Notes under the pieces: model-generated
Told to the model about the DNA's origin: nothing
The model's database searches: none
What the model saw: the letters and a program-made list of their open reading frames with translations, nothing else
Origin: an uncultured Roseovarius sp.
GTDB taxonomy: Bacteria; Pseudomonadota; Alphaproteobacteria; Rhodobacterales; Rhodobacteraceae
NCBI GenBank assembly: GCA_951812895.1
Contig: OX638333.1
Location: 3,762,001-3,826,000, forward strand
Direction: 5' to 3'
DNA length: 64,000 bases
Made by a program: the position numbers and the translations under genes
Part shown: piece by piece, positions 4,612 through 12,903 of the stretch
How positions within the stretch are numbered: position 1 is the stretch's first letter
Layout of the letters: each line of letters starts with the position of its first letter

Positions 4612-5493
4612 TCAGGCGACCATTTTCTCAACTACGTCGCCAAAGGAGGACGGTGTTGGCACAATCGCAACGCCTGCTTCTTTGAGGATGTCGACCTTTT
4701 CCTGAGCCGATTCACCGAAAGCAGAGACAATTGCCCCGGCATGGCCCATGGTGCGGCCTTTGGGTGCGGACAGACCTGCGATATAGGCCGCGACCGGCTT
4801 GGTCATGTGATCACGGATATACTCAGCAGCTTCAGCCTCTTGCGGGCCACCGATTTCGCCGACCAATACCACGGCATCGGTGTCAGGATCGGCCTCGAAC
4901 AGTTCAAGAATATCCTTAAAGCTTGATCCGTTGATCGGGTCGCCGCCGATGCCGATGGAGGAGGAAACGCCAATATTGCGCTCTTTCATCTGGCTTGCTG
5001 CCTCGTAACCAAGTGTGCCTGAGCGTCCGACAATTCCAACCCGACCAGGCTGATAGATATGAGGAGGCATGAGACCAGCGAACGCTTGCCCGGGCGTGAT
5101 GATACCGGCGCAGTTTGGCCCGATCAGGCGCATGCGGTTGGCCGATTTATAGCGACGCATAAAGCGTTTAACCCGGATCATGTCCTGGGCCGGGATCCCA
5201 TCGGCGATGCACACGCAGGTTTTGATTCCTGCGTCAGCGGCTTCGCAAATTGAATCGGCGGCAAAAGGTGGTGGTACGAAACTGGCGACAAGATCGGCAC
5301 CGGTTTCTGCGACAGCGCCTTTGACGGTGTTGAACACCGGCAAACCCAGATGGCTGCCACCGCCTTTGCCCGGCGTGACGCCACCAACCACGTTGGTGCC
5401 GTGATTCATCATATCCTGCGCGTGGAAGCTACCGATGCGACCGGTAAACCCTGTAACCAGAACGCGAGTGTCTTTGTCGATCAGAATGGCCAT
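4612..5493 (-). CDS. mtkB: Malate-CoA ligase (malate thiokinase) alpha subunit MtkB
   Basis: Small subunit of the ADP-forming ligase that converts malate, ATP and CoA to malyl-CoA in the serine cycle. The 293-residue protein has the succinyl-CoA-synthetase alpha layout: a CoA-binding Rossmann domain from the N-terminus (VTGFTGRIGSFH), GPNCAGIITPG near residue 125, and the ligase domain with the conserved active-site histidine in GRTMGHAGAI near residue 250. From memory it is much closer to MtkB of Methylorubrum than to housekeeping SucD. Adjacent malyl-CoA lyase and serine-glyoxylate aminotransferase genes support malate rather than succinate as substrate, although succinyl-CoA synthetase activity cannot be excluded from sequence alone. 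It overlaps mtkA by one base. Confidence 0.85.
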   Translation of the reverse strand: MAILIDKDTRVLVTGFTGRIGSFHAQDMMNHGTNVVGGVTPGKGGGSHLGLPVFNTVKGAVAETGADLVASFVPPPFAADSICEAADAGIKTCVCIADGIPAQDMIRVKRFMRRYKSANRMRLIGPNCAGIITPGQAFAGLMPPHIYQPGRVGIVGRSGTLGYEAASQMKERNIGVSSSIGIGGDPINGSSFKDILELFEADPDTDAVVLVGEIGGPQEAEAAEYIRDHMTKPVAAYIAGLSAPKGRTMGHAGAIVSAFGESAQEKVDILKEAGVAIVPTPSSFGDVVEKMVA

Positions 5494-6677
5494 TACACGG
5501 CCTCCTCTATGCTTTTGGATTTCCAGGACTTCACAACTTTATCGGCGGCCTCGGCAAGCGAGCTGGCGGTTTCGATGTTGAGACCACTGTCTTTAAGCAG
5601 GGTCATGCCCTCTTCGACATTTGTGCCTGACAGGCGCACGACAAGTGGCATTTTCAGATCCAGTTCCTTCACCGCCCGGATCACGCCTTCAGCGATCCAG
5701 TCACAGCGATTGATGCCAGCGAAGATATTGACAAGAATCGCCTCGACATTGCGGTCATTGAGGACAGCCTTGAACGACATCAAGACACGCTCTGGGCTGG
5801 CTCCACCACCGACATCAAGGAAGTTGGCGGGTTCACCACCGGCCATCTTGATCATGTCGAGCGTTGCCATGGCAAGGCCCGCACCGTTAACGATGCAACC
5901 GATTTTGCCATCAAGGCCGATGTAGCTGAGGCCACGGTCACCGGCATACGTTTCGCGCGGATCTTCCTGTGATTTATCGCGAAGCTCAGACACATCCGGG
6001 TGCCGGAAGAGGGCGTTGTCATCAAAGCTGAGCTTGCCGTCAAGTGCTACGATCTCGCCCCCACCGGTTACAACCAGCGGGTTGATTTCGACCATATTGG
6101 CGTCCATCTGGTTCATCAGGTTGTAGCAGCCCATGATGGTCTTGACTGCCTGAGGGATCAGAGCTGGGTCAAGTCCAAGCGAGAAGGCAATTTCACGCGC
6201 CTGAAAGCTTTGCATGCCGACCGCCGGGTCAACCACCGAACGGATAATGGATTCTGGTTCTTTTTCAGAAATCTCTTCGATTTCCATTCCACCCTGGGCC
6301 GAAGCGACAACCACAACACGTTCTTCGGTCCGGTCCATAACAAAGGCCAGGTAAATTTCCTGAACAATGTTGGTGGCCTCTTCGATGTAGAGGCGGTTGA
6401 CCAGTTTCCCTTGTGGCCCGGTCTGATGGGTGACCAGTTTGCGGCCAAGCATCCACTGTGCCGATTCTTCGACCTCTTGTTCTGTCGAACAGATTCGAAC
6501 GCCACCGGCTTTGCCCCGGGCACCCGAGTGAATCTGGGCTTTGACCACCCATTTTTCGCCGGAAAGTTCGCTACAGCGATAAACGGCTTGTTCCGGGCTG
6601 TAGGCAATTCCGCCGCGCGGCACATTGACACCAAAGCGTTTTAGAAGCTCTTTGGCCTGATATTCATGAATGTCCAT
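5493..6677 (-). CDS. mtkA: Malate-CoA ligase (malate thiokinase) beta subunit MtkA
   Basis: Large, ATP-grasp subunit of malate-CoA ligase (394 residues). The N-terminus [12 protein letters not shown] is typical of SucC/MtkA proteins; the ATP-grasp fold covers roughly residues 1-235 ([24 protein letters not shown]), and the C-terminal ligase domain holds FLDVGGGAS and the [15 protein letters not shown] stretch. The latter segment closely matches methylotroph MtkA as recalled. It starts 24 bases after the malyl-CoA lyase stop and ends overlapping mtkB, so mcl-mtkA-mtkB form one operon. A GGAGGG ribosome-binding site precedes the ATG on the minus strand. Confidence 0.87.
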
Positions 6678-6701: not shown

Positions 6702-7643
6702 TTAGCCTTTGGCCGCGATCGCGTCGGCGACGGTGAGGACGTTGTTCGCCATACGCTCGCTCGCGGCATCGATCATTTTACCGTCAAGAGATGCAGCGCC
6801 TTTGCCTTCGGCCTCTGCTTTGCGCAGCTCTTCGATAATACGGCGGGCGCGGGTGACTTCCGATTCTGGTGGCGAGAACACCTGATTGGCCAGTTCGATC
6901 TGGCTGGGATGGATGGCCCATTTACCTTCGATGCCCAGTGCTGCACCACGTTTGGCGGCGAGGATAAAGCTGTCAGGATCAGAGAAATCACCAAACGGTC
7001 CGTCGATGGCGCGCAGGCCATAGGCGCGACAGGCCACCGTCATGCGCGACAGGGCAAAATGCCACTGATCACCCGGGTAATCGGGGTTCAGACCTCCGAT
7101 GACCACGGTGCGGGCGCGGTTAGAGGCAGCATAATCTGCCACACCGAAATGCATCGCTTCCAAACGACCCGGCGCGGCGGCAATGGCTTCAACATTGGCC
7201 ATACCAAGCGCGGTTTCAATCAGCGCTTCAAGACCAATCTGGTGCGTGAACCCCATAGCCTCTTCGATCTGACTGACCATGGTTTCGACGGTGTAAAGAT
7301 CACCGGGTACGCCCACTTTGGGAACCAGAATGGTGTCGAGGTGCTGACCGGCCTGTTCAACAATCTCAACAACGTCGCGGTACATGTAATGGGTATCGAG
7401 GCCGTTGATGCGGATCGACATGGTTTTGCCTTTGGCTTTCCAGTCGATGTCGTTCAGGGCCTGAATGATGTTGGAACGCGCCTGAATTTTCTCAGGCGGG
7501 GCAACCGCGTCTTCAAGGTCGAGGAAGATATAATCGACATCGCTGTCGGCCGCTTTTTCTATCATCGATGGGTTGGACCCCGGCACCGCCAGTTCCGATC
7601 TTTGCAGGCGTTGTTTTTTCAGCGGGTGTAGCGTGTAGCTCAT
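6702..7643 (-). CDS. mcl: Malyl-CoA lyase (HpcH/HpaI, CitE-like)
   Basis: Cleaves malyl-CoA to acetyl-CoA and glyoxylate; in the serine cycle it regenerates the glyoxylate acceptor. With the ATG at 7643 the protein has 313 residues, usual for the family, and AGGAACG precedes it; a longer reading frame reaching 7832 has no support. Recognisable features are SELAVPGSNPSM near residue 20, the metal-site Glu and Asp of the TIM barrel (FLDLEDAV near 45; GLEALIETALG near 150), FGVADYAAS near 180 and the C-terminal AIHPSQIE motif. Homologues in Rhodobacter also act on beta-methylmalyl-CoA in the ethylmalonyl-CoA pathway, so a dual role is possible. It is first in the operon with mtkA and mtkB. Confidence 0.88.
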   Translation of the reverse strand: MSYTLHPLKKQRLQRSELAVPGSNPSMIEKAADSDVDYIFLDLEDAVAPPEKIQARSNIIQALNDIDWKAKGKTMSIRINGLDTHYMYRDVVEIVEQAGQHLDTILVPKVGVPGDLYTVETMVSQIEEAMGFTHQIGLEALIETALGMANVEAIAAAPGRLEAMHFGVADYAASNRARTVVIGGLNPDYPGDQWHFALSRMTVACRAYGLRAIDGPFGDFSDPDSFILAAKRGAALGIEGKWAIHPSQIELANQVFSPPESEVTRARRIIEELRKAEAEGKGAASLDGKMIDAASERMANNVLTVADAIAAKG

Positions 7644-7782
7644 TTTGTCGTTCCTTGAATAGCCCAAAGTATGATGGCCCTGGGGCGGTGTTTGCTTGAT
7701 CTCATGGTCGGGGGAAAAGCGACTTGGCGATACTTTCCCCCGGGTAACAAAGCGTGCCCGGGGTTGGGGTCTGGGCCTGAAC

Positions 7783-7801
7783 GGGTAGGGGGTGGCTACC
7801 C
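7783..7801. promoter_or_regulatory. Inverted repeat GGGTAG-N7-CTACCC upstream of mcl
   Basis: A perfect 6-bp inverted repeat with a 7-base spacer, 140 bases before the mcl start. The same arms and spacing recur at 9346-9364 upstream of the serine-glyoxylate aminotransferase gene, and in both cases the repeat is preceded by AC. This is what an operator for one dimeric regulator would look like. The rest of the 7644-7960 leader shows no gene. Confidence 0.6.
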
Positions 7802-7960
7802 GTACCCGGGCTGCCGGAGTGCAATGGGGCACCGTCGCTGCAGTGCAGAGAAGCCTATAGAAAACAATTGTTTACGATCGGAAACTTTTGGGGAGCCGAG
7901 TAACGTATCTGACAATCCGCAGGATCAGATAAGCAAATCAGAAGAGGGGGGATTCGCACG

Positions 7961-7992
7961 AAAAACGGGCCATGATGTGTGATCATGGCCCG
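7961..7992 (-). terminator. Intrinsic terminator after the serine-glyoxylate aminotransferase gene
   Basis: An 11-bp perfect stem (CGGGCCATGAT at 7966-7976 with ATCATGGCCCG at 7982-7992) and a 5-base loop are followed in the minus direction by TTTTT (7961-7965). It lies 60 bases past the stop of the minus-strand aminotransferase gene, so that gene and the mcl-mtkA-mtkB operon are probably separate transcripts. Confidence 0.88.
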
Positions 7993-8051
7993 CTCATTGT
8001 CGCTGTTATTACAGGCTAAACTTGGCAGGTAAACCGTTGGGATACTGCGCT

Positions 8052-9239
8052 CTATTTGGAAGGTGTAGTGGCGCAGTAATGTGCCTGCGCCGCTGCGACA
8101 CCTGAACCGGGCTCAATCTTGGCGCCAGCGTCAGTCAATGCCATTTCCGCCGCGGAAAGCGCACCACACAGCATGACAGGGTTCAATGACCCCAGGTGGC
8201 CGATACGAAATGCCTTGCCCATCAGTTTGTTCAGGCCGGTGCCAAACGAGGTGTTGTATTTGTAAAACCCAGCCGAAATCACATCACGCGCATCGACACC
8301 ATCGGGGGTGTAGATCGCGGATACAGTATCTGATGCCCATTCAGGCCCGCGTGAAACAAGCTCGCACCCGTCCCACGCCGCAACAGCAAGGCGAACCCCC
8401 TCAGCAAGGCGGTTGTGGCGTTCCCACACGTTTTCCATTCCCACCTCAATCAACATGTCCAGCGATACCCGCAGGCCGCGCAAAAGCTGGGTGGCGGGGG
8501 TATAAGGGAAATAGCCTGTGTCGTTCAGTTTAATCATATCCTCAAAGCTGAAATAGCACCGGTTCATACCTGAATTGCCAATTGCTTTGTTGGCCTCAAG
8601 CGCCTTGTCGGACACGCCCAGAATGCCAAGACCCGCAGGTAACATGAACCCTTTTTGAGAGCCTGAGACAGCAAGGTCCACGCCCCATTTGTCCATTTCG
8701 AATTCAACCGAAGCAATAGAGCTGACACCATCCACAAACAGCATTGCCGGATGGCCAGTTTCATCAAGCGCGGCCCGAACGGCGGCGATGTCTGACTTTA
8801 CCCCGGTCGCCGTTTCATTCTGGGTGCAGAACACAGCCTTGATGCTGTGTGATGTGTCCGCGGCAAGCTTGGATTTGTAGTCGTCTGCTGGCACACCTTT
8901 GCCCCACTCGACTTCGCACAGATCGACATCAAGGCCTAAACGCTCTGCCATATCCACCCAAAGAAGCGAGAATTGGCCAAAGCGCGACATCAACACCTTC
9001 TCCCCGGAATTCAGTGTGTTCTGGATAGCTGATTCCCATGCACCTGTTCCGGAAGACGGGAACAGGAATACGCGTCCCGCTTCCATCCGGTAGACCTTTT
9101 TCAGGTCGGTCAGCAGGCCGCTGACGAAATCCGGGAAATCCGGCGCGCGCATATCTTCCATTGGAATGTTCATCGCCTGACGAACAGGTTCTGGAATGTT
9201 GGTGGGGCCGGGGATGAATAGATGTTGGTTGCCGTTCAT
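8052..9239 (-). CDS. sgaA: Serine-glyoxylate aminotransferase
   Basis: PLP-dependent class V aminotransferase that transfers the amino group of serine to glyoxylate, giving hydroxypyruvate and glycine, a key serine-cycle step. Starting at the ATG at 9239 (GGAGAG upstream on the minus strand) it has 395 residues, the usual length. The N-terminal FIPGPTNIPEPV and the PLP-Lys region SGSQKGFMLPAGLG near residue 190 are characteristic, as is LFVDGVSSIASVEF holding the PLP-binding Asp. Neighbouring malate-CoA ligase and malyl-CoA lyase genes make the serine-cycle role more likely than alanine-glyoxylate activity. The divergent regulator gene begins 263 bases away across a shared intergenic region. 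Confidence 0.87.
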   Translation of the reverse strand: MNGNQHLFIPGPTNIPEPVRQAMNIPMEDMRAPDFPDFVSGLLTDLKKVYRMEAGRVFLFPSSGTGAWESAIQNTLNSGEKVLMSRFGQFSLLWVDMAERLGLDVDLCEVEWGKGVPADDYKSKLAADTSHSIKAVFCTQNETATGVKSDIAAVRAALDETGHPAMLFVDGVSSIASVEFEMDKWGVDLAVSGSQKGFMLPAGLGILGVSDKALEANKAIGNSGMNRCYFSFEDMIKLNDTGYFPYTPATQLLRGLRVSLDMLIEVGMENVWERHNRLAEGVRLAVAAWDGCELVSRGPEWASDTVSAIYTPDGVDARDVISAGFYKYNTSFGTGLNKLMGKAFRIGHLGSLNPVMLCGALSAAEMALTDAGAKIEPGSGVAAAQAHYCATTPSK

Positions 9240-9345
9240 GATCGCTCTCCTGTGGGGCTGCGACAATGTTCGCGCTGCTTTTCCCTTTGCGTAATGCCCG
9301 AGTGAATACCAGTTGCAAACCAGAGTCCGACGACCACCGACAAAC

Positions 9346-9364
9346 GGGTAGGGCGACACTACCC
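9346..9364. promoter_or_regulatory. Inverted repeat GGGTAG-N7-CTACCC between sgaA and its divergent regulator
   Basis: Second copy of the inverted repeat found at 7783-7801, with identical arms and spacer length. It lies 107 bases before the sgaA start and 139 bases before the regulator start, so it could serve both. The shared intergenic region (9240-9502) otherwise contains an AT-rich stretch near 9405-9435 that may hold promoter elements. Confidence 0.6.
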
Positions 9365-9502
9365 TTTCGGGGGAATTACAATGGCAATCAAAGCATGCAT
9401 GCCGATGTATACTAGTTTTTCCTTATTTTTCATCGGTTTCCCGCTCGTATTTGTCGCAATTTGCCACATGGAGGAATTCTGATTCTGATCTATGCTTGGA
9501 CC

Positions 9503-10159
9503 ATGAACCAGATCGAGACGACGCCAGAAATGACAACAGAACCACATGCAGACATCCCGGAAGTGATCGTCGCAGATCGGCAGGTCATCGTTTGCCAGGG
9601 GCTTGGTTCGCTGGTTTCCCAGATATCAGAGGTGCGTCTCGGGCCATTTGCGACGGATAAAGCAACGCTCAAGAAGCATCTGTCAGGTACGCGTGGCAGG
9701 ACCATTCTGATCCTTGGCATCAGATTGGTGGATGGGGATTTGACCCAGGTTCTGGAAATGGTTCGGCGGGATTATCCGGAGGTCATGGTTGTTGTCGTGG
9801 CTGAAGATACCGAATTTGCCTTTATCCGTACGGCGGTAAAGGCAGGTGCAAACTCTGTCTGTTTGATGAGTCGGATACTGGATAGTTTACCCAAGATTCT
9901 GGGTAAGCTGATCGAAGGACATTCGATTGTTCCGACCGATATTCTACGAAAACTGACATCTGAGAATACCGACAGCCTGTCGCGCCGTGAGCATGAAATT
10001 TTGACGTTGTTGGTGGACGGATTGACCAATTTTCAGATTTCTGCACGGCTGGGTCTGAGCGAGAATACGGTGAAATATTACCTCAAGGCGATTTACCAGA
10101 AACTGAGCGTTAATTCCCGTGGTGCGGCAATCGCAAAATATGTCGCCGGAAACTACTGA
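9503..10159 (+). CDS. LuxR/NarL-type regulator with a degenerate receiver domain
   Basis: Transcription factor of about 218 residues: a receiver-like domain at residues 20-130 and a LuxR/GerE helix-turn-helix at about residues 155-212 ([20 protein letters not shown], then [17 protein letters not shown]). The phosphoacceptor position is Gly72 ([12 protein letters not shown]) where active receivers have Asp, the N-terminal acidic pair is reduced to a single Asp, and the conserved Lys before the last helix is absent (VCLMSRIL). Phosphorylation control is therefore unlikely. Divergent to sgaA, it is the obvious candidate to bind the GGGTAG-N7-CTACCC repeats and control the serine-cycle genes. The start at 9503 is chosen; 9461 or 9530 are alternatives. 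Confidence 0.8.
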
Positions 10160-10177: not shown

Positions 10178-11668
10178 TCAGGAATTTTCTTCACTGATAT
10201 CGACGAGATGCCACCTCACCCGATCGCTTTTGACCGGATCAAGGTTGCGCACCCGGGGTGAAAGCCCGACAAGCTGGGTCCGGTGATAGGGTATCAGTGT
10301 TCCGGAATGTTCGGCCAAATACTCCTGGGCATGAATGTAATAATTGCGCCGTTCAGCGAAATCGAGCTCTTGCCTGGCGCGGGCGAGCATGTGGTCAAAC
10401 CTTGGATCGTTGAAATGGCTTTCATTCCATTTTGCTTCAGAATGGAACGCCTCGTTTAACACCTGATCAGCGGGCCGTTCGCCCCAACTTGTCGCGAAGA
10501 CATCTTTATGCATCCAGACTTCTGTCCAGTAGCCATCAGCAGATGCATTTTTAATTTTGACCCGAATTCCCGCTTCTGCGGCGTGGTCCTGATACACAAC
10601 GGCCATTGGGGACCATGAGGCATCGATAGACGAGACATGGAGAGTTACATCAATGCCATCCGGATAGCCCGCTTCGGTCAGCAGCGCACGTGCCTGTTCA
10701 ACATCCCGGTCACAACTCATTTCAGAACGATACTGATCACCGGGCCCAACCGGGGTGTCACAACTGATAATTCCACCGCCATCAAGCGCCAGTTTGAGCA
10801 TCTCAGCCCGGTCAACAGCCAGCCGGAGAGCGCGGCGCACACGCACATCATTGAACGGAGCCACATCTGTGCGGAACACGAACCCCGACCAGTTGCCGGT
10901 TGGAATTTCCTGAACCACGTATTTCGATGACCGTTTCAGCGCACGACGCACCAGCGGACGCAAGCCGCGCTCCATATCCAATTGCCCGGCCAGGAACGCC
11001 TGCATACGTGTGTTGGCGTCGGGGATGCCGATAATTTCCATACGCTCCAATTTGGGCGTGCCTTCCCAATATCCGTCAAATGCGCTCAATATTGTGGTGC
11101 CGTCGGGATCAAACTTTTCAAGTTGAAATGGTCCCGTGCCAATGCCGGTCTGGCCGATTGTATCCCCGGATCCTTCGGGAATGATCCGCAGACGGGGGTC
11201 CATTAACTGCAGGGGGAGATCGGCGAAGGTCGACTCCAGATTGATCTGAACTGTGAACGCGTCCAGAGCAACCACGGTCTGCATCATTTTGACGGCAGAA
11301 TGTGCCGGGCTGCCCATTTCCGGATCGAGTACGCGGTTGAGCGAATAAACCACGTCCGCGGCATCAAAGTCGGTGCCATCATGAAATTGCACGCCTTCGC
11401 GCAGGGTAAGTGTCCAGACAGACCCATCGGAATTTGCACTCCATCCCGTGGCAAGGTCGGGCTCAGGCCGGCCATCCGCTCCGGGTCGGATCAGGCGGCT
11501 CATCATTTTTTCGGTGATCTGAAGGACACGACCTTTGGAAATCGGATCAAGGCTGGAATGCGCACCCGATCCAAGGTCGTGTGCGAAACGGAAAGTGCCC
11601 TGCGGTTCAGCTGCGGCAATACCACTTATCAGCAGAAGGCTGAAAATCATTGAAATAACGCTGCGCAT
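10178..11668 (-). CDS. ABC transporter substrate-binding protein, family 5 (peptide/opine type)
   Basis: Periplasmic solute-binding protein of the DppA/OppA class, 496 residues from the ATG at 11668, with an N-terminal signal peptide (MRSVISMIFSLLLISGIAAA). Family features include LATGWSANSDGSVWTLTLRE near residue 80, DAADVVYSLNRV near 115 and VRRALRLAVDR near 300. Its C-terminal third resembles the second binding protein of this region (14003-15601), including a DGYW-E/D-VW block, so they are probably paralogues. The frame extending to 11710 adds residues before a good signal peptide and is rejected. No permease or ATPase gene lies nearby. The ligand is unknown; the dipeptidase next door suggests peptides. 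Confidence 0.85.
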   Translation of the reverse strand: MRSVISMIFSLLLISGIAAAEPQGTFRFAHDLGSGAHSSLDPISKGRVLQITEKMMSRLIRPGADGRPEPDLATGWSANSDGSVWTLTLREGVQFHDGTDFDAADVVYSLNRVLDPEMGSPAHSAVKMMQTVVALDAFTVQINLESTFADLPLQLMDPRLRIIPEGSGDTIGQTGIGTGPFQLEKFDPDGTTILSAFDGYWEGTPKLERMEIIGIPDANTRMQAFLAGQLDMERGLRPLVRRALKRSSKYVVQEIPTGNWSGFVFRTDVAPFNDVRVRRALRLAVDRAEMLKLALDGGGIISCDTPVGPGDQYRSEMSCDRDVEQARALLTEAGYPDGIDVTLHVSSIDASWSPMAVVYQDHAAEAGIRVKIKNASADGYWTEVWMHKDVFATSWGERPADQVLNEAFHSEAKWNESHFNDPRFDHMLARARQELDFAERRNYYIHAQEYLAEHSGTLIPYHRTQLVGLSPRVRNLDPVKSDRVRWHLVDISEENS

Positions 11669-11901
11669 GGCTGTCCCCCGTTTGGGGCAGGTTATGCGGG
11701 AGTCATACACACGGGCAAATCAAATTTGATTATCTGCAATTTGCTGTTGCGTTCCAGGTTTGCTTTGCCGGCTGTCAGCCGACCGACAAGACAATCTGGT
11801 CGTCAAAAAATGCCTTCTCAATGGTGCAGGTGCATCCCTTCCTGTCTTCAGGAAAACACCCACAAATTTTAATTGGTACAGGCCGTCTTGGTGGGGAATC
11901 C

Positions 11902-12903
11902 TTACCTCAGAACTTCGGTTGTAACACGGGCGAAATTGCCGCCAAGAATCGCCCGAATATCGTCTTCTGGATACTGATGTGACAGCATAAGTTTAACCAA
12001 TTCAATAATTTGCTCGGGTTGAGCAAACGCTGTTGCACGGTTCGGGTCATCGTTGAACGGCGGCCACATATCGGGCCTTTGTGCAACCCATTCCCAGAAT
12101 TCCGGTACATCTTTTACATAGTCAAGACCGATACCAACATGTTGAGGTCCAACCAGATTGACCATGTAATCTATGTGGCGGAACATCGCCTCGCTGCTGG
12201 CAGAGCGATCGCCCAGAAATTCACCAATACCGTTGATGCCGATTACACCACCAGTCGCAGCACAAGCCTTGATCTGATCGTCTTTGATGTTGCGGTAATG
12301 CGGCTGCACCCCATAGGCGTTGCAGTGTGAAAAGATGAACGGCGCGTTACATACCTCAATTGCATCCATCGATGTGCGATACCCTGTATGCGTGCCATCG
12401 ACCAACATACCGACCCGGTTCATCTCTTTCACGACCTGCACACCAAAACGGCTTAGCCCGGCATCTCCCGGCTCGGCACACCCATCGCCGACCCGGTTTT
12501 TAAGGTTATAGGAAAGCAGCATGTGGCGGATACCCAGCTGGAAATAAACATCAATCATGTTGACATCACCATCCAGAGGATTGGTTTCCTGTAAATGGAA
12601 GGTAAGGGCCAGCTTTCCGGCTTTTTTGGCCTCAATGGCTTCATCGGGTGAAGTGATGAAGGTCATCGTATCTGAATTTGCCCGGATGTAGGCCCGGATA
12701 TTTGCAATATGTTGAATGGTTTGATCCCGCGTCGGCGCATCTAATGTCAGCGAGATCACGTCAATGCCAGCGGCATGAAACCGGGGCAGGGTGACATCGT
12801 CAGATTCATTTTGCTGAAAAGGCAATGTCATGTCCCAAACCAGCGCATCATCATAAATTGCCTTGGCCTGATCGCTGATTTTGAAGGGATTTGGGGATGT
12901 CAT
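11902..12903 (-). CDS. M19 (renal dipeptidase-like) metallopeptidase, atypical first metal site
   Basis: A 333-residue member of the M19 membrane-dipeptidase superfamily (TIM-barrel amidohydrolase fold). Conserved elements visible are VDGTHTGYRTS near residue 165, PFIFSHCNAYGVQPHYRN near 187 and HVGIGLDYV near 255, holding the metal-ligand His residues and the catalytic-type Asp. The usual N-terminal His-x-Asp ligand pair is replaced by Asp-x-Thr (VWDMTLPF near residue 22), so metal binding or chemistry may differ from classical dipeptidases. No signal peptide is seen, implying a cytoplasmic enzyme. It lies among binding-protein, regulator and amidohydrolase genes, suggesting work on an imported dipeptide or amide. 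Confidence 0.8.
   Translation of the reverse strand: MTSPNPFKISDQAKAIYDDALVWDMTLPFQQNESDDVTLPRFHAAGIDVISLTLDAPTRDQTIQHIANIRAYIRANSDTMTFITSPDEAIEAKKAGKLALTFHLQETNPLDGDVNMIDVYFQLGIRHMLLSYNLKNRVGDGCAEPGDAGLSRFGVQVVKEMNRVGMLVDGTHTGYRTSMDAIEVCNAPFIFSHCNAYGVQPHYRNIKDDQIKACAATGGVIGINGIGEFLGDRSASSEAMFRHIDYMVNLVGPQHVGIGLDYVKDVPEFWEWVAQRPDMWPPFNDDPNRATAFAQPEQIIELVKLMLSHQYPEDDIRAILGGNFARVTTEVLR

What the first reader, a model, noticed from the sequence alone, without database searches (positions are those of the whole stretch)
7783..9364. Identical GGGTAG-N7-CTACCC inverted repeats upstream of both serine-cycle transcription units
Two perfect 6-bp inverted repeats with the same 7-base spacer lie 140 bases before mcl (7783-7801) and 107 bases before sgaA (9346-9364), each preceded by AC. 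Their arm and spacer identity, and the regulator gene beside the second copy, point to a shared operator for the serine-cycle module. Seen in sequence; the regulator match is inference.
Basis: partly seen in the sequence, partly recalled or inferred. Interest (0 to 1): 0.7.

Follow-up and report, generated by a model that had tools for sequence, protein, structure and literature searches.

The report
Serine-cycle operator of LuxR-type regulator
A short mirrored DNA sequence sits in front of each group of carbon-assimilation (serine-cycle) genes in marine Roseovarius-like bacteria, and comparison of many genomes suggests strongly that it is the binding site of the regulator encoded next to it.

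Summary
GGGTAG-N7-CTACCC occurs exactly twice in the 4.54 Mb genome, before mcl and between sgaA and a divergent NarL/LuxR-type gene. All 54 luxR intergenic regions compared keep it within 2 mismatches (N6 or N7), 29 perfectly; 5400 dinucleotide shuffles gave none perfect. It marks heads of transcription units: within 1 mismatch in 28 of 28 loci where mcl or mtkB starts its own unit, while 20 of 20 operon-internal mcl genes have nothing better than 3 mismatches in 300 bp. Among 84 same-genus genomes, 60 of 66 with the regulator have an exact site, against 1 of 18 without. In other genera, 23 of 23 serine clusters without the regulator lack the site; three distant regulators (39-43% identical) keep it. 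The spacer is 6 or 7, so it is no strict LysR box. Best reading: operator of the adjacent regulator, whose receiver domain has lost its phospho-acceptor aspartate, controlling both serine-cycle units and probably itself. New detail: a third half-site TACCC lies 41 bp towards mcl/mtkB in 20 of 29 promoters, and GYATNC 14-15 bp on the far side in 27 of 29. Binding is inferred, not shown.

The parts
7783..7801 (.). Dyad operator GGGTAG-N7-CTACCC upstream of the mcl-mtkB-mtkA unit (with flanks, arms ACGGGTAG / CTACCCGT)
   Evidence: equivalent site in 28 of 28 independently headed mcl/mtkB units of related loci
9346..9364 (.). Dyad operator GGGTAG-N7-CTACCC in the divergent sgaA | luxR intergenic region
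   Evidence: conserved within 2 mismatches in 54 of 54 luxR intergenic regions, this one included
7742..7747 (-). Third half-site (TTACCC on the mcl strand), offset 41 from the mcl-proximal CTACCC, followed by GGGGGAAAGTATCGC
   Evidence: exact TACCC at offset 41 in 20 of 29 mcl/mtkB promoters (this one included), 42 in 1, 21 in 2; five more have a one-mismatch copy at 40-41, one has none
9289..9300 (-). sgaA promoter-proximal block (CGGGCATTACGC on the sgaA strand), offset 51 from the sgaA-proximal CTACCC
   Evidence: best match to CGGGCGTTACGC lies at offset 50 or 51 in 42 of 48 sgaA promoters, with 0-5 mismatches of 12
7817..7822 (-). Degenerate GYATNC-like element (GCACTC on the mcl strand), 15 bp beyond the mcl dyad
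   Evidence: GYATNC at gap 14-15 in 27 of 29 mcl/mtkB promoters; the window is one of the two without an exact one
9397..9412 (.). Second conserved dyad GYATRC-N4-GYATRC (GCATGCCGATGTATAC) between the operator and luxR
   Evidence: at most 1 mismatch within 60 bp in 47 of 54 intergenic regions; 7 of 2700 shuffles
9503..10159 (+). Proposed regulator: NarL/FixJ-type protein, 218 aa, GerE (LuxR) helix-turn-helix, degenerate receiver without the phospho-acceptor Asp
8052..9239 (-). sgaA-like class V aminotransferase (presumed serine-glyoxylate aminotransferase), target unit 1
   Evidence: best model BhcA, 558 bits, under its cut-off of 650
6702..7643 (-). mcl, HpcH/HpaI-family lyase (presumed malyl-CoA lyase), first gene of target unit 2
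   Evidence: no NCBIfam equivalog cut-off met
5493..6677 (-). mtk beta subunit (malate--CoA ligase)
   Evidence: NF010647, 688.8 bits, cut-off 604
4612..5493 (-). mtk alpha subunit (succinate/malate--CoA ligase)
7966..7992 (.). 11-bp perfect inverted repeat just past the sgaA stop, terminator-like, between the two units
   Evidence: I3; terminator function is inference

Best explanation
The repeats are the operators of the neighbouring NarL/FixJ (LuxR-HTH) regulator at 9503-10159. A dimer binds the dyad CCGAAC-GGGTRG-N6/7-CYACCC-G, one copy at the head of each serine-cycle transcription unit (sgaA, often with hprA in relatives; and mcl-mtkB-mtkA). The copy in the divergent sgaA | luxR region can also serve autoregulation. 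The near-fixed 41-bp offset to a third TACCC half-site at mcl/mtkB promoters, and to a matching block at sgaA, fits an activator that touches RNA polymerase or oligomerises along one face of the DNA. The receiver lacks its phospho-acceptor Asp, so the signal is probably not phosphorylation but a ligand or the protein level. Shown: presence, conservation, placement, co-occurrence, loss of the Asp. Inferred: binding, activation, signal.
For: Genome-unique pair. 54 of 54 luxR intergenic regions keep the dyad within 2 mismatches, perfect in 29; 5400 shuffles: 0 perfect, 5 with one mismatch, 80 with two. 28 of 28 mcl/mtkB genes heading their own unit have it within 1 mismatch, 26 perfect; 20 of 20 operon-internal mcl genes have nothing better than 3 mismatches in the same 300 bp. 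Regulator and exact site co-occur: 60 of 66 regulator-positive and 1 of 18 regulator-negative same-genus genomes, the exception a 66%-complete genome (Fisher P 6.5e-12, not corrected for ancestry). 73 of 77 listed exact sites lie at the cluster. In other genera three distant orthologues (39, 42, 43% identity) keep the dyad with at most 1 mismatch (L103, L104, L105), while 23 of 23 clusters without the regulator have none within 2 mismatches in 450 bp before sgaA. Beside nine still more divergent linked regulators GGGTA/TACCC occurs 22 times in 2723 bp, against 3 in 7590 bp of the 23 regulator-less promoters. Variation falls at position 5 of either arm (71 A/8 G and 62 A/17 G of 79), as for a protein half-site. 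The recognition helix is nearly unchanged in the close group.
Against: No binding or expression data. In the genus, regulator, site and close mtkB are nearly always inherited together, so co-occurrence there cannot separate the regulator from its targets. One of the 60 positive genomes (G366) has its only exact site away from the cluster, and for three (G372, G373, G376) the listing was cut before the place was shown. Of the 12 linked regulators outside the main Roseovarius type, only 5 have a site within 2 mismatches at N6/N7 spacing in the searched stretch; in L110 that one lies at the end of the regulator's frame, its better copy lying upstream of the regulator. G347 has a site before mcl but no regulator was found. 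Six regulator-positive genomes lack an exact site; two that I read (G325, G335) have one mismatch. The reversed control 5-mers were also richer in the divergent group (14 in 2723 against 15 in 7590 bp), and its stretches were picked by hand. The tree does not settle that the close and divergent regulators form one clade.
Confidence: 0.85

Rival explanations
1. The dyad is a LysR-type box (T-N11-A) bound by a QscR/CbbR-like regulator encoded elsewhere, as in Methylobacterium extorquens.
For: With the 7-bp spacer the site reads GGG-T-N11-A-CCC (the LysR box is recalled). QscR, a LysR-type protein, regulates serine-cycle genes in M. extorquens and is not next to them (passages of PMC3486813 and PMC2680597).
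Against: 23 of 79 sites have a 6-bp spacer, hence T-N10-A, and divergent members use other arrangements. The site goes with the adjacent LuxR-type gene and is missing from the 23 serine clusters of other genera without it. My own LysR-HTH motif was found in 1 of 41 Roseovarius-type loci of at least 14 kb and in 0 of 40 loci of other genera; it did find one LysR gene in the window. An unlinked LysR is not excluded.
Confidence: 0.08
2. The repeats act as RNA hairpins (leader, attenuator or terminator) rather than DNA operators.
For: A 6-8 bp stem with a 6-7 base loop could form in RNA; it lies in front of genes.
Against: Single changes occur in either arm (GGGTGG with CTACCC in L019 and L026, GGGTAG with CCACCC in L013 and L016), so on either strand some genomes would carry an A-C mismatch. 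The dyad sits at a near-fixed distance from a promoter-proximal block and so probably upstream of the transcription start (inference). No long run of T follows either window copy.
Confidence: 0.03
3. The dyads are operators for the cluster, but another, unlinked protein binds them; the adjacent regulator binds another element such as the GYATRC-N4-GYATRC dyad near its own promoter.
For: The second dyad is also well conserved (47 of 54 regions) and lies nearer luxR; GYATNC also flanks the mcl dyad at 14-15 bp (27 of 29).
Against: Divergent linked regulators still sit beside GGGTA/TACCC half-sites. The second dyad is weak (2-4 mismatches) in G278, L036 and L065, which have regulator and operator.
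Confidence: 0.08

Closest known systems
NarL/FixJ (LuxR-HTH) response regulators and their heptamer sites (NarL TACYYMT, recalled)
   Same: GerE helix-turn-helix well over the Pfam cut-off; similarity over most of the length to solved response regulators such as ChrA, VraR and NarL; the half-site TACCC resembles the recalled NarL heptamer; arrangement of half-sites is flexible across relatives
   Different: Receiver lacks the phospho-acceptor Asp and the Lys; the two half-sites are in the order GGGTAG-N6/7-CTACCC, unlike the recalled NarL 7-2-7 order; none of the 25 NCBIfam models shown reaches its cut-off
QscR serine-cycle regulon of Methylobacterium extorquens (LysR type)
   Same: One regulator for clustered serine-cycle genes (passages of PMC3486813 and PMC2680597)
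   Different: Different protein family; regulator there is unlinked; the site here has variable spacing. The primary QscR papers are not held, so its site was not compared
DmfR, LuxR-family activator of dimethylformamide genes in Paracoccus aminophilus
   Same: LuxR-family activator of one-carbon compound use in Paracoccus (passage of PMC4543880)
   Different: Different genes; not compared by sequence here

Membership tests
NarL/FixJ LuxR-HTH regulators | C-terminal GerE helix-turn-helix | tested here: met
   PF00196, 67 bits, cut-off 23.5
NarL/FixJ LuxR-HTH regulators | N-terminal receiver-like domain | tested here: met
NarL/FixJ LuxR-HTH regulators | Phosphorylatable receiver (Asp, acidic pair, Lys) | tested here: not met
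   Asp replaced by Gly in the 11 Roseovarius-type rows aligned; against ChrA, Lys is replaced by Met and one of the two acidic residues by Arg
LysR box (QscR/CbbR type) | T-N11-A spacing | tested here: not met
   Present in the N7 sites (56 of 79), absent in the 23 of 79 with N6
LysR box (QscR/CbbR type) | Bound by a LysR-type protein | not testable with these tools
   No linked LysR motif in 40 of 41 Roseovarius-type loci; unlinked ones not examined
Transcription factor operator of a specific regulon | Recurrence upstream of co-functional units, tied to the regulator gene | tested here: met
Transcription factor operator of a specific regulon | Physical binding by the regulator | not testable with these tools
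   Needs mobility shift or footprinting

The most novel reading that the evidence does not exclude
Serine-cycle clusters of several Rhodobacteraceae are governed by an undescribed family of NarL-type regulators, phosphorylation-independent in the Roseovarius branch, that stand in for the LysR-type QscR logic, sense a pathway metabolite through the degenerate receiver and assemble on a three-half-site promoter (dyad plus TACCC four helical turns downstream, or two turns in two cases).
Probability: 0.4. Interest if true: 0.65.

Novelty: new member of a known kind. Interest (0 to 1): 0.5.

Why it matters
In the passages seen, the serine cycle's transcriptional regulator is the LysR-type QscR of Methylobacterium. 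This finding gives marine Roseovarius-like bacteria a candidate regulator of another family with a defined operator, a defined two-unit target set and a near-fixed promoter layout, testable with two reporter plasmids and one knockout. It also offers a case of sensing by a receiver domain that has lost its phospho-acceptor.

Tried and rejected
Chance: rejected by the genome count and shuffles. RNA hairpin: judged unlikely from arm variation and position. LysR box: attractive because the N7 site contains T-N11-A, but spacer variation and lack of linkage speak against it. In the 295-genome family sample 6 genomes have an exact N7 site; outside G000 and G278 these are L006, L007, L008 and L010, whose surroundings (1.5 kb each side, read by eye) show no serine-cycle gene, so I take them as background; so too the four of 77 listed genus sites away from the cluster. 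The three one-mismatch sites elsewhere in the own genome (L003, L004, L005) lie inside long reading frames. A weakly similar protein outside the family (L201/L202, 29% identity, the only other hit in 337 class genomes) has none of the five query genes and no dyad within the 13 kb read. Helical phasing of the second dyad's gaps is suggestive only: resultant length 0.52 at period 10.0 and 0.43 at 10.5, and the genomes are related. The operon-internal loci were first scanned over their short gaps only; I repeated the scan over 300 bp for both groups, with the same result.

Rows dropped: of 55 loci, L063, L064 and L067 have no upstream gene on the contig and are not among the 54 regions (52 loci plus the window and G278). 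Nine of the 40 loci have no mtkB within reach and were left out. L183 (G347) is one of the 24 regulator-less rows printed there; its sgaA match is truncated and its genome 66% complete, so I speak of 23. L103, L104, L184 and L188 are the same loci as L066, L065, L061 and L038. L065 and L066 were left out of the sgaA promoter alignment. The third half-site search took the best match nearest to an offset of 42, and the dyad and block patterns came from the same sequences, so these counts lean towards the pattern.

Papers: listing; passages of PMC9320726 (references only), PMC3486813, PMC2680597, PMC4543880 and PMC4770636. Searches for a LuxR-type or other regulator of the serine cycle in these bacteria gave no title or abstract start on such a regulator; most listed papers were not opened, and the library holds open-licence papers only.

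Full report
Observation. The 4.54 Mb single-contig genome holds the exact N7 pattern nowhere else, and no N6 version. Most of the 55 loci that encode relatives of the regulator in named genomes are labelled Roseovarius, so the window is probably from that genus.

Genes. On the minus strand lie an sgaA-like aminotransferase (8052-9239), mcl (6702-7643), mtkB (5493-6677) and mtkA (4612-5493). Malate-CoA ligase beta is over its NCBIfam cut-off; the aminotransferase is under the BhcA cut-off, and no model names it SgaA. An 11-bp inverted repeat at 7966-7992 follows sgaA, so mcl probably starts a second unit. The plus-strand gene at 9503 encodes a 218-aa protein with a GerE helix-turn-helix that aligns over most of its length to NarL-type response regulators.

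Conservation. I compared 54 regions between the regulator and sgaA (50) or mcl (4). The best GGGTAG-N6/7-CTACCC match has 0 mismatches in 29, 1 in 23 and 2 in 2; in 5400 dinucleotide shuffles the counts were 0, 5 and 80. In the 50 sgaA regions it starts at position 101-116 counted from the sgaA match. Pooled with the mcl/mtkB promoters, the spacer is 7 in 56 and 6 in 23 of 79 sites, and the gene-proximal half reads CCGAACGGGTRG. These counts lean towards the pattern because the best match was picked.

A natural test. In some genomes mcl follows sgaA or hprA directly, in others it is separated. In 28 of 28 loci with a gap of at least 120 bases before mcl (or before mtkB where mcl is missing) the site is there within 1 mismatch, 26 perfect. 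In the 20 loci with gaps of 38-66 bases it is not: over the same 300 bp the best matches have 3-5 mismatches. Four of the 28 are mcl|luxR regions also counted among the 54. So the site marks heads of transcription units, not a gene.

Link to the regulator. In 84 same-genus genomes, 66 have the regulator at E 1e-25 and 60 of these have an exact N6/N7 site; of 18 without it, 1 has a site. That one, G347, is 66% complete and has mtkB at 82%. For G366 the only exact site lies away from the cluster, and for G372, G373 and G376 the listing was cut. Four of the 18 (G298, G300, G309, G364) have a divergent mtkB at 64-66% and no exact site; their clusters carry a more distant regulator of the same kind beside GGGTA/TACCC half-sites. 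Of the 77 exact sites listed, 73 lie within 6 kb of luxR or mtkB. The association P value of 6.5e-12 ignores shared ancestry.

Beyond the genus. Among 295 family genomes, the two of this genus included, the regulator was found in 5 at E 1e-25. I took 40 loci around sgaA or regulator hits; 31 have mtkB. In 8 of these a regulator of this kind is near (E under 1e-12, within 3.5 kb), in 23 not. None of the 23 has a site within 2 mismatches in the 450 bases before sgaA. Of the 8, five do (L103, L104, L105, L110, L113) and three do not (L107, L114, L131). In nine divergent clusters GGGTA/TACCC occurs 22 times in 2723 bases, against 3 in 7590 bases of the 23 regulator-less promoters; a reversed control gave 14 and 15, so part of the excess is general. 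A tree of these proteins with the other GerE proteins of the genome joins the close group (L103, L104, L105 and the Roseovarius type) with support 98/91 and the divergent group with 91/83, under the tool's mark; it leaves open whether the two groups are one clade, and several other branches are long.

Promoter layout. In 29 mcl/mtkB promoters a third half-site TACCC, in the direction of the proximal arm, lies at an offset of 41 in 20, 42 in 1 and 21 in 2; five more have a one-mismatch copy at 40-41 and one has none. A GAAAGTRTC-like block follows it in most of those shown. In sgaA promoters the best match to CGGGCGTTACGC lies at 50-51 in 42 of 48. On the far side of the dyad, GYATNC lies at 14-15 bases in 27 of 29 mcl/mtkB promoters; the window's own copy is degenerate. 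Between the dyad and luxR, 47 of 54 regions carry a second dyad GYATRC-N4-GYATRC with at most 1 mismatch, against 7 of 2700 shuffles.

Mechanism. A symmetric site whose variation falls at the same place in either arm, tied to a linked helix-turn-helix gene and placed at a near-fixed distance from a promoter-proximal block, is best read as an operator for that protein. The 41-bp offset, seen with both N6 and N7 spacers, favours an activator; that is inference. The receiver has Gly at the phospho-acceptor position in the 11 Roseovarius-type rows aligned, so control by phosphorylation is unlikely there. One divergent clade (L114, L131, L179-L182) keeps an Asp at that place.

Rivals. A LysR-type QscR homologue is the main rival because the N7 site contains T-N11-A. 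The N6 sites break that spacing, and LysR genes are not linked. An RNA hairpin is unlikely because single changes occur in either arm. A different protein on the same dyad cannot be excluded without binding data.

Literature. In the passages seen, QscR is the LysR-type regulator of the M. extorquens serine cycle and its DNA binding responds to formyl-H4F. Seven searches listed no title or abstract start on a LuxR-type serine-cycle regulator. The NarL heptamer and the LysR box are recalled.

Noticed in passing
window 9397-9412: A second conserved dyad, GYATRC-N4-GYATRC, sits between the operator and luxR in 47 of 54 related regions, often followed by TTTGATTTCATCGG-like sequence; its gap to the operator clusters at 15-16, 20-24, 31-35 and 42-43 bp.
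   Followed up: partly
L061 7578-7931 (same locus as L184): sgaA seems to be lost and mcl stands behind what looks like an sgaA-type promoter with its operator; the mtkB match covers only residues 1-315.
   Followed up: no
L114, L131, L179-L182: Serine clusters with mcl at about 62% identity carry a divergent regulator that keeps an Asp in the receiver, beside GGGTA/TACCC half-sites in other spacings, in L131 also as direct repeats.
   Followed up: partly
L011 2-703: In G278 the gene on the other side of the regulator looks like a reductive activator of corrinoid-dependent methyltransferases (from resemblance only, no search made).
   Followed up: no
window 10178-12903: Next to the regulator lie a family-5 solute-binding protein and a membrane dipeptidase, peptidase M19; the neighbours differ in L019 and L011, the two relatives whose frames I read there.
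   Followed up: no
L105 5884-6170: In another genus (G270), where no sgaA was found at the locus, a perfect N6 dyad lies between mcl and a regulator of 43% identity.
   Followed up: yes
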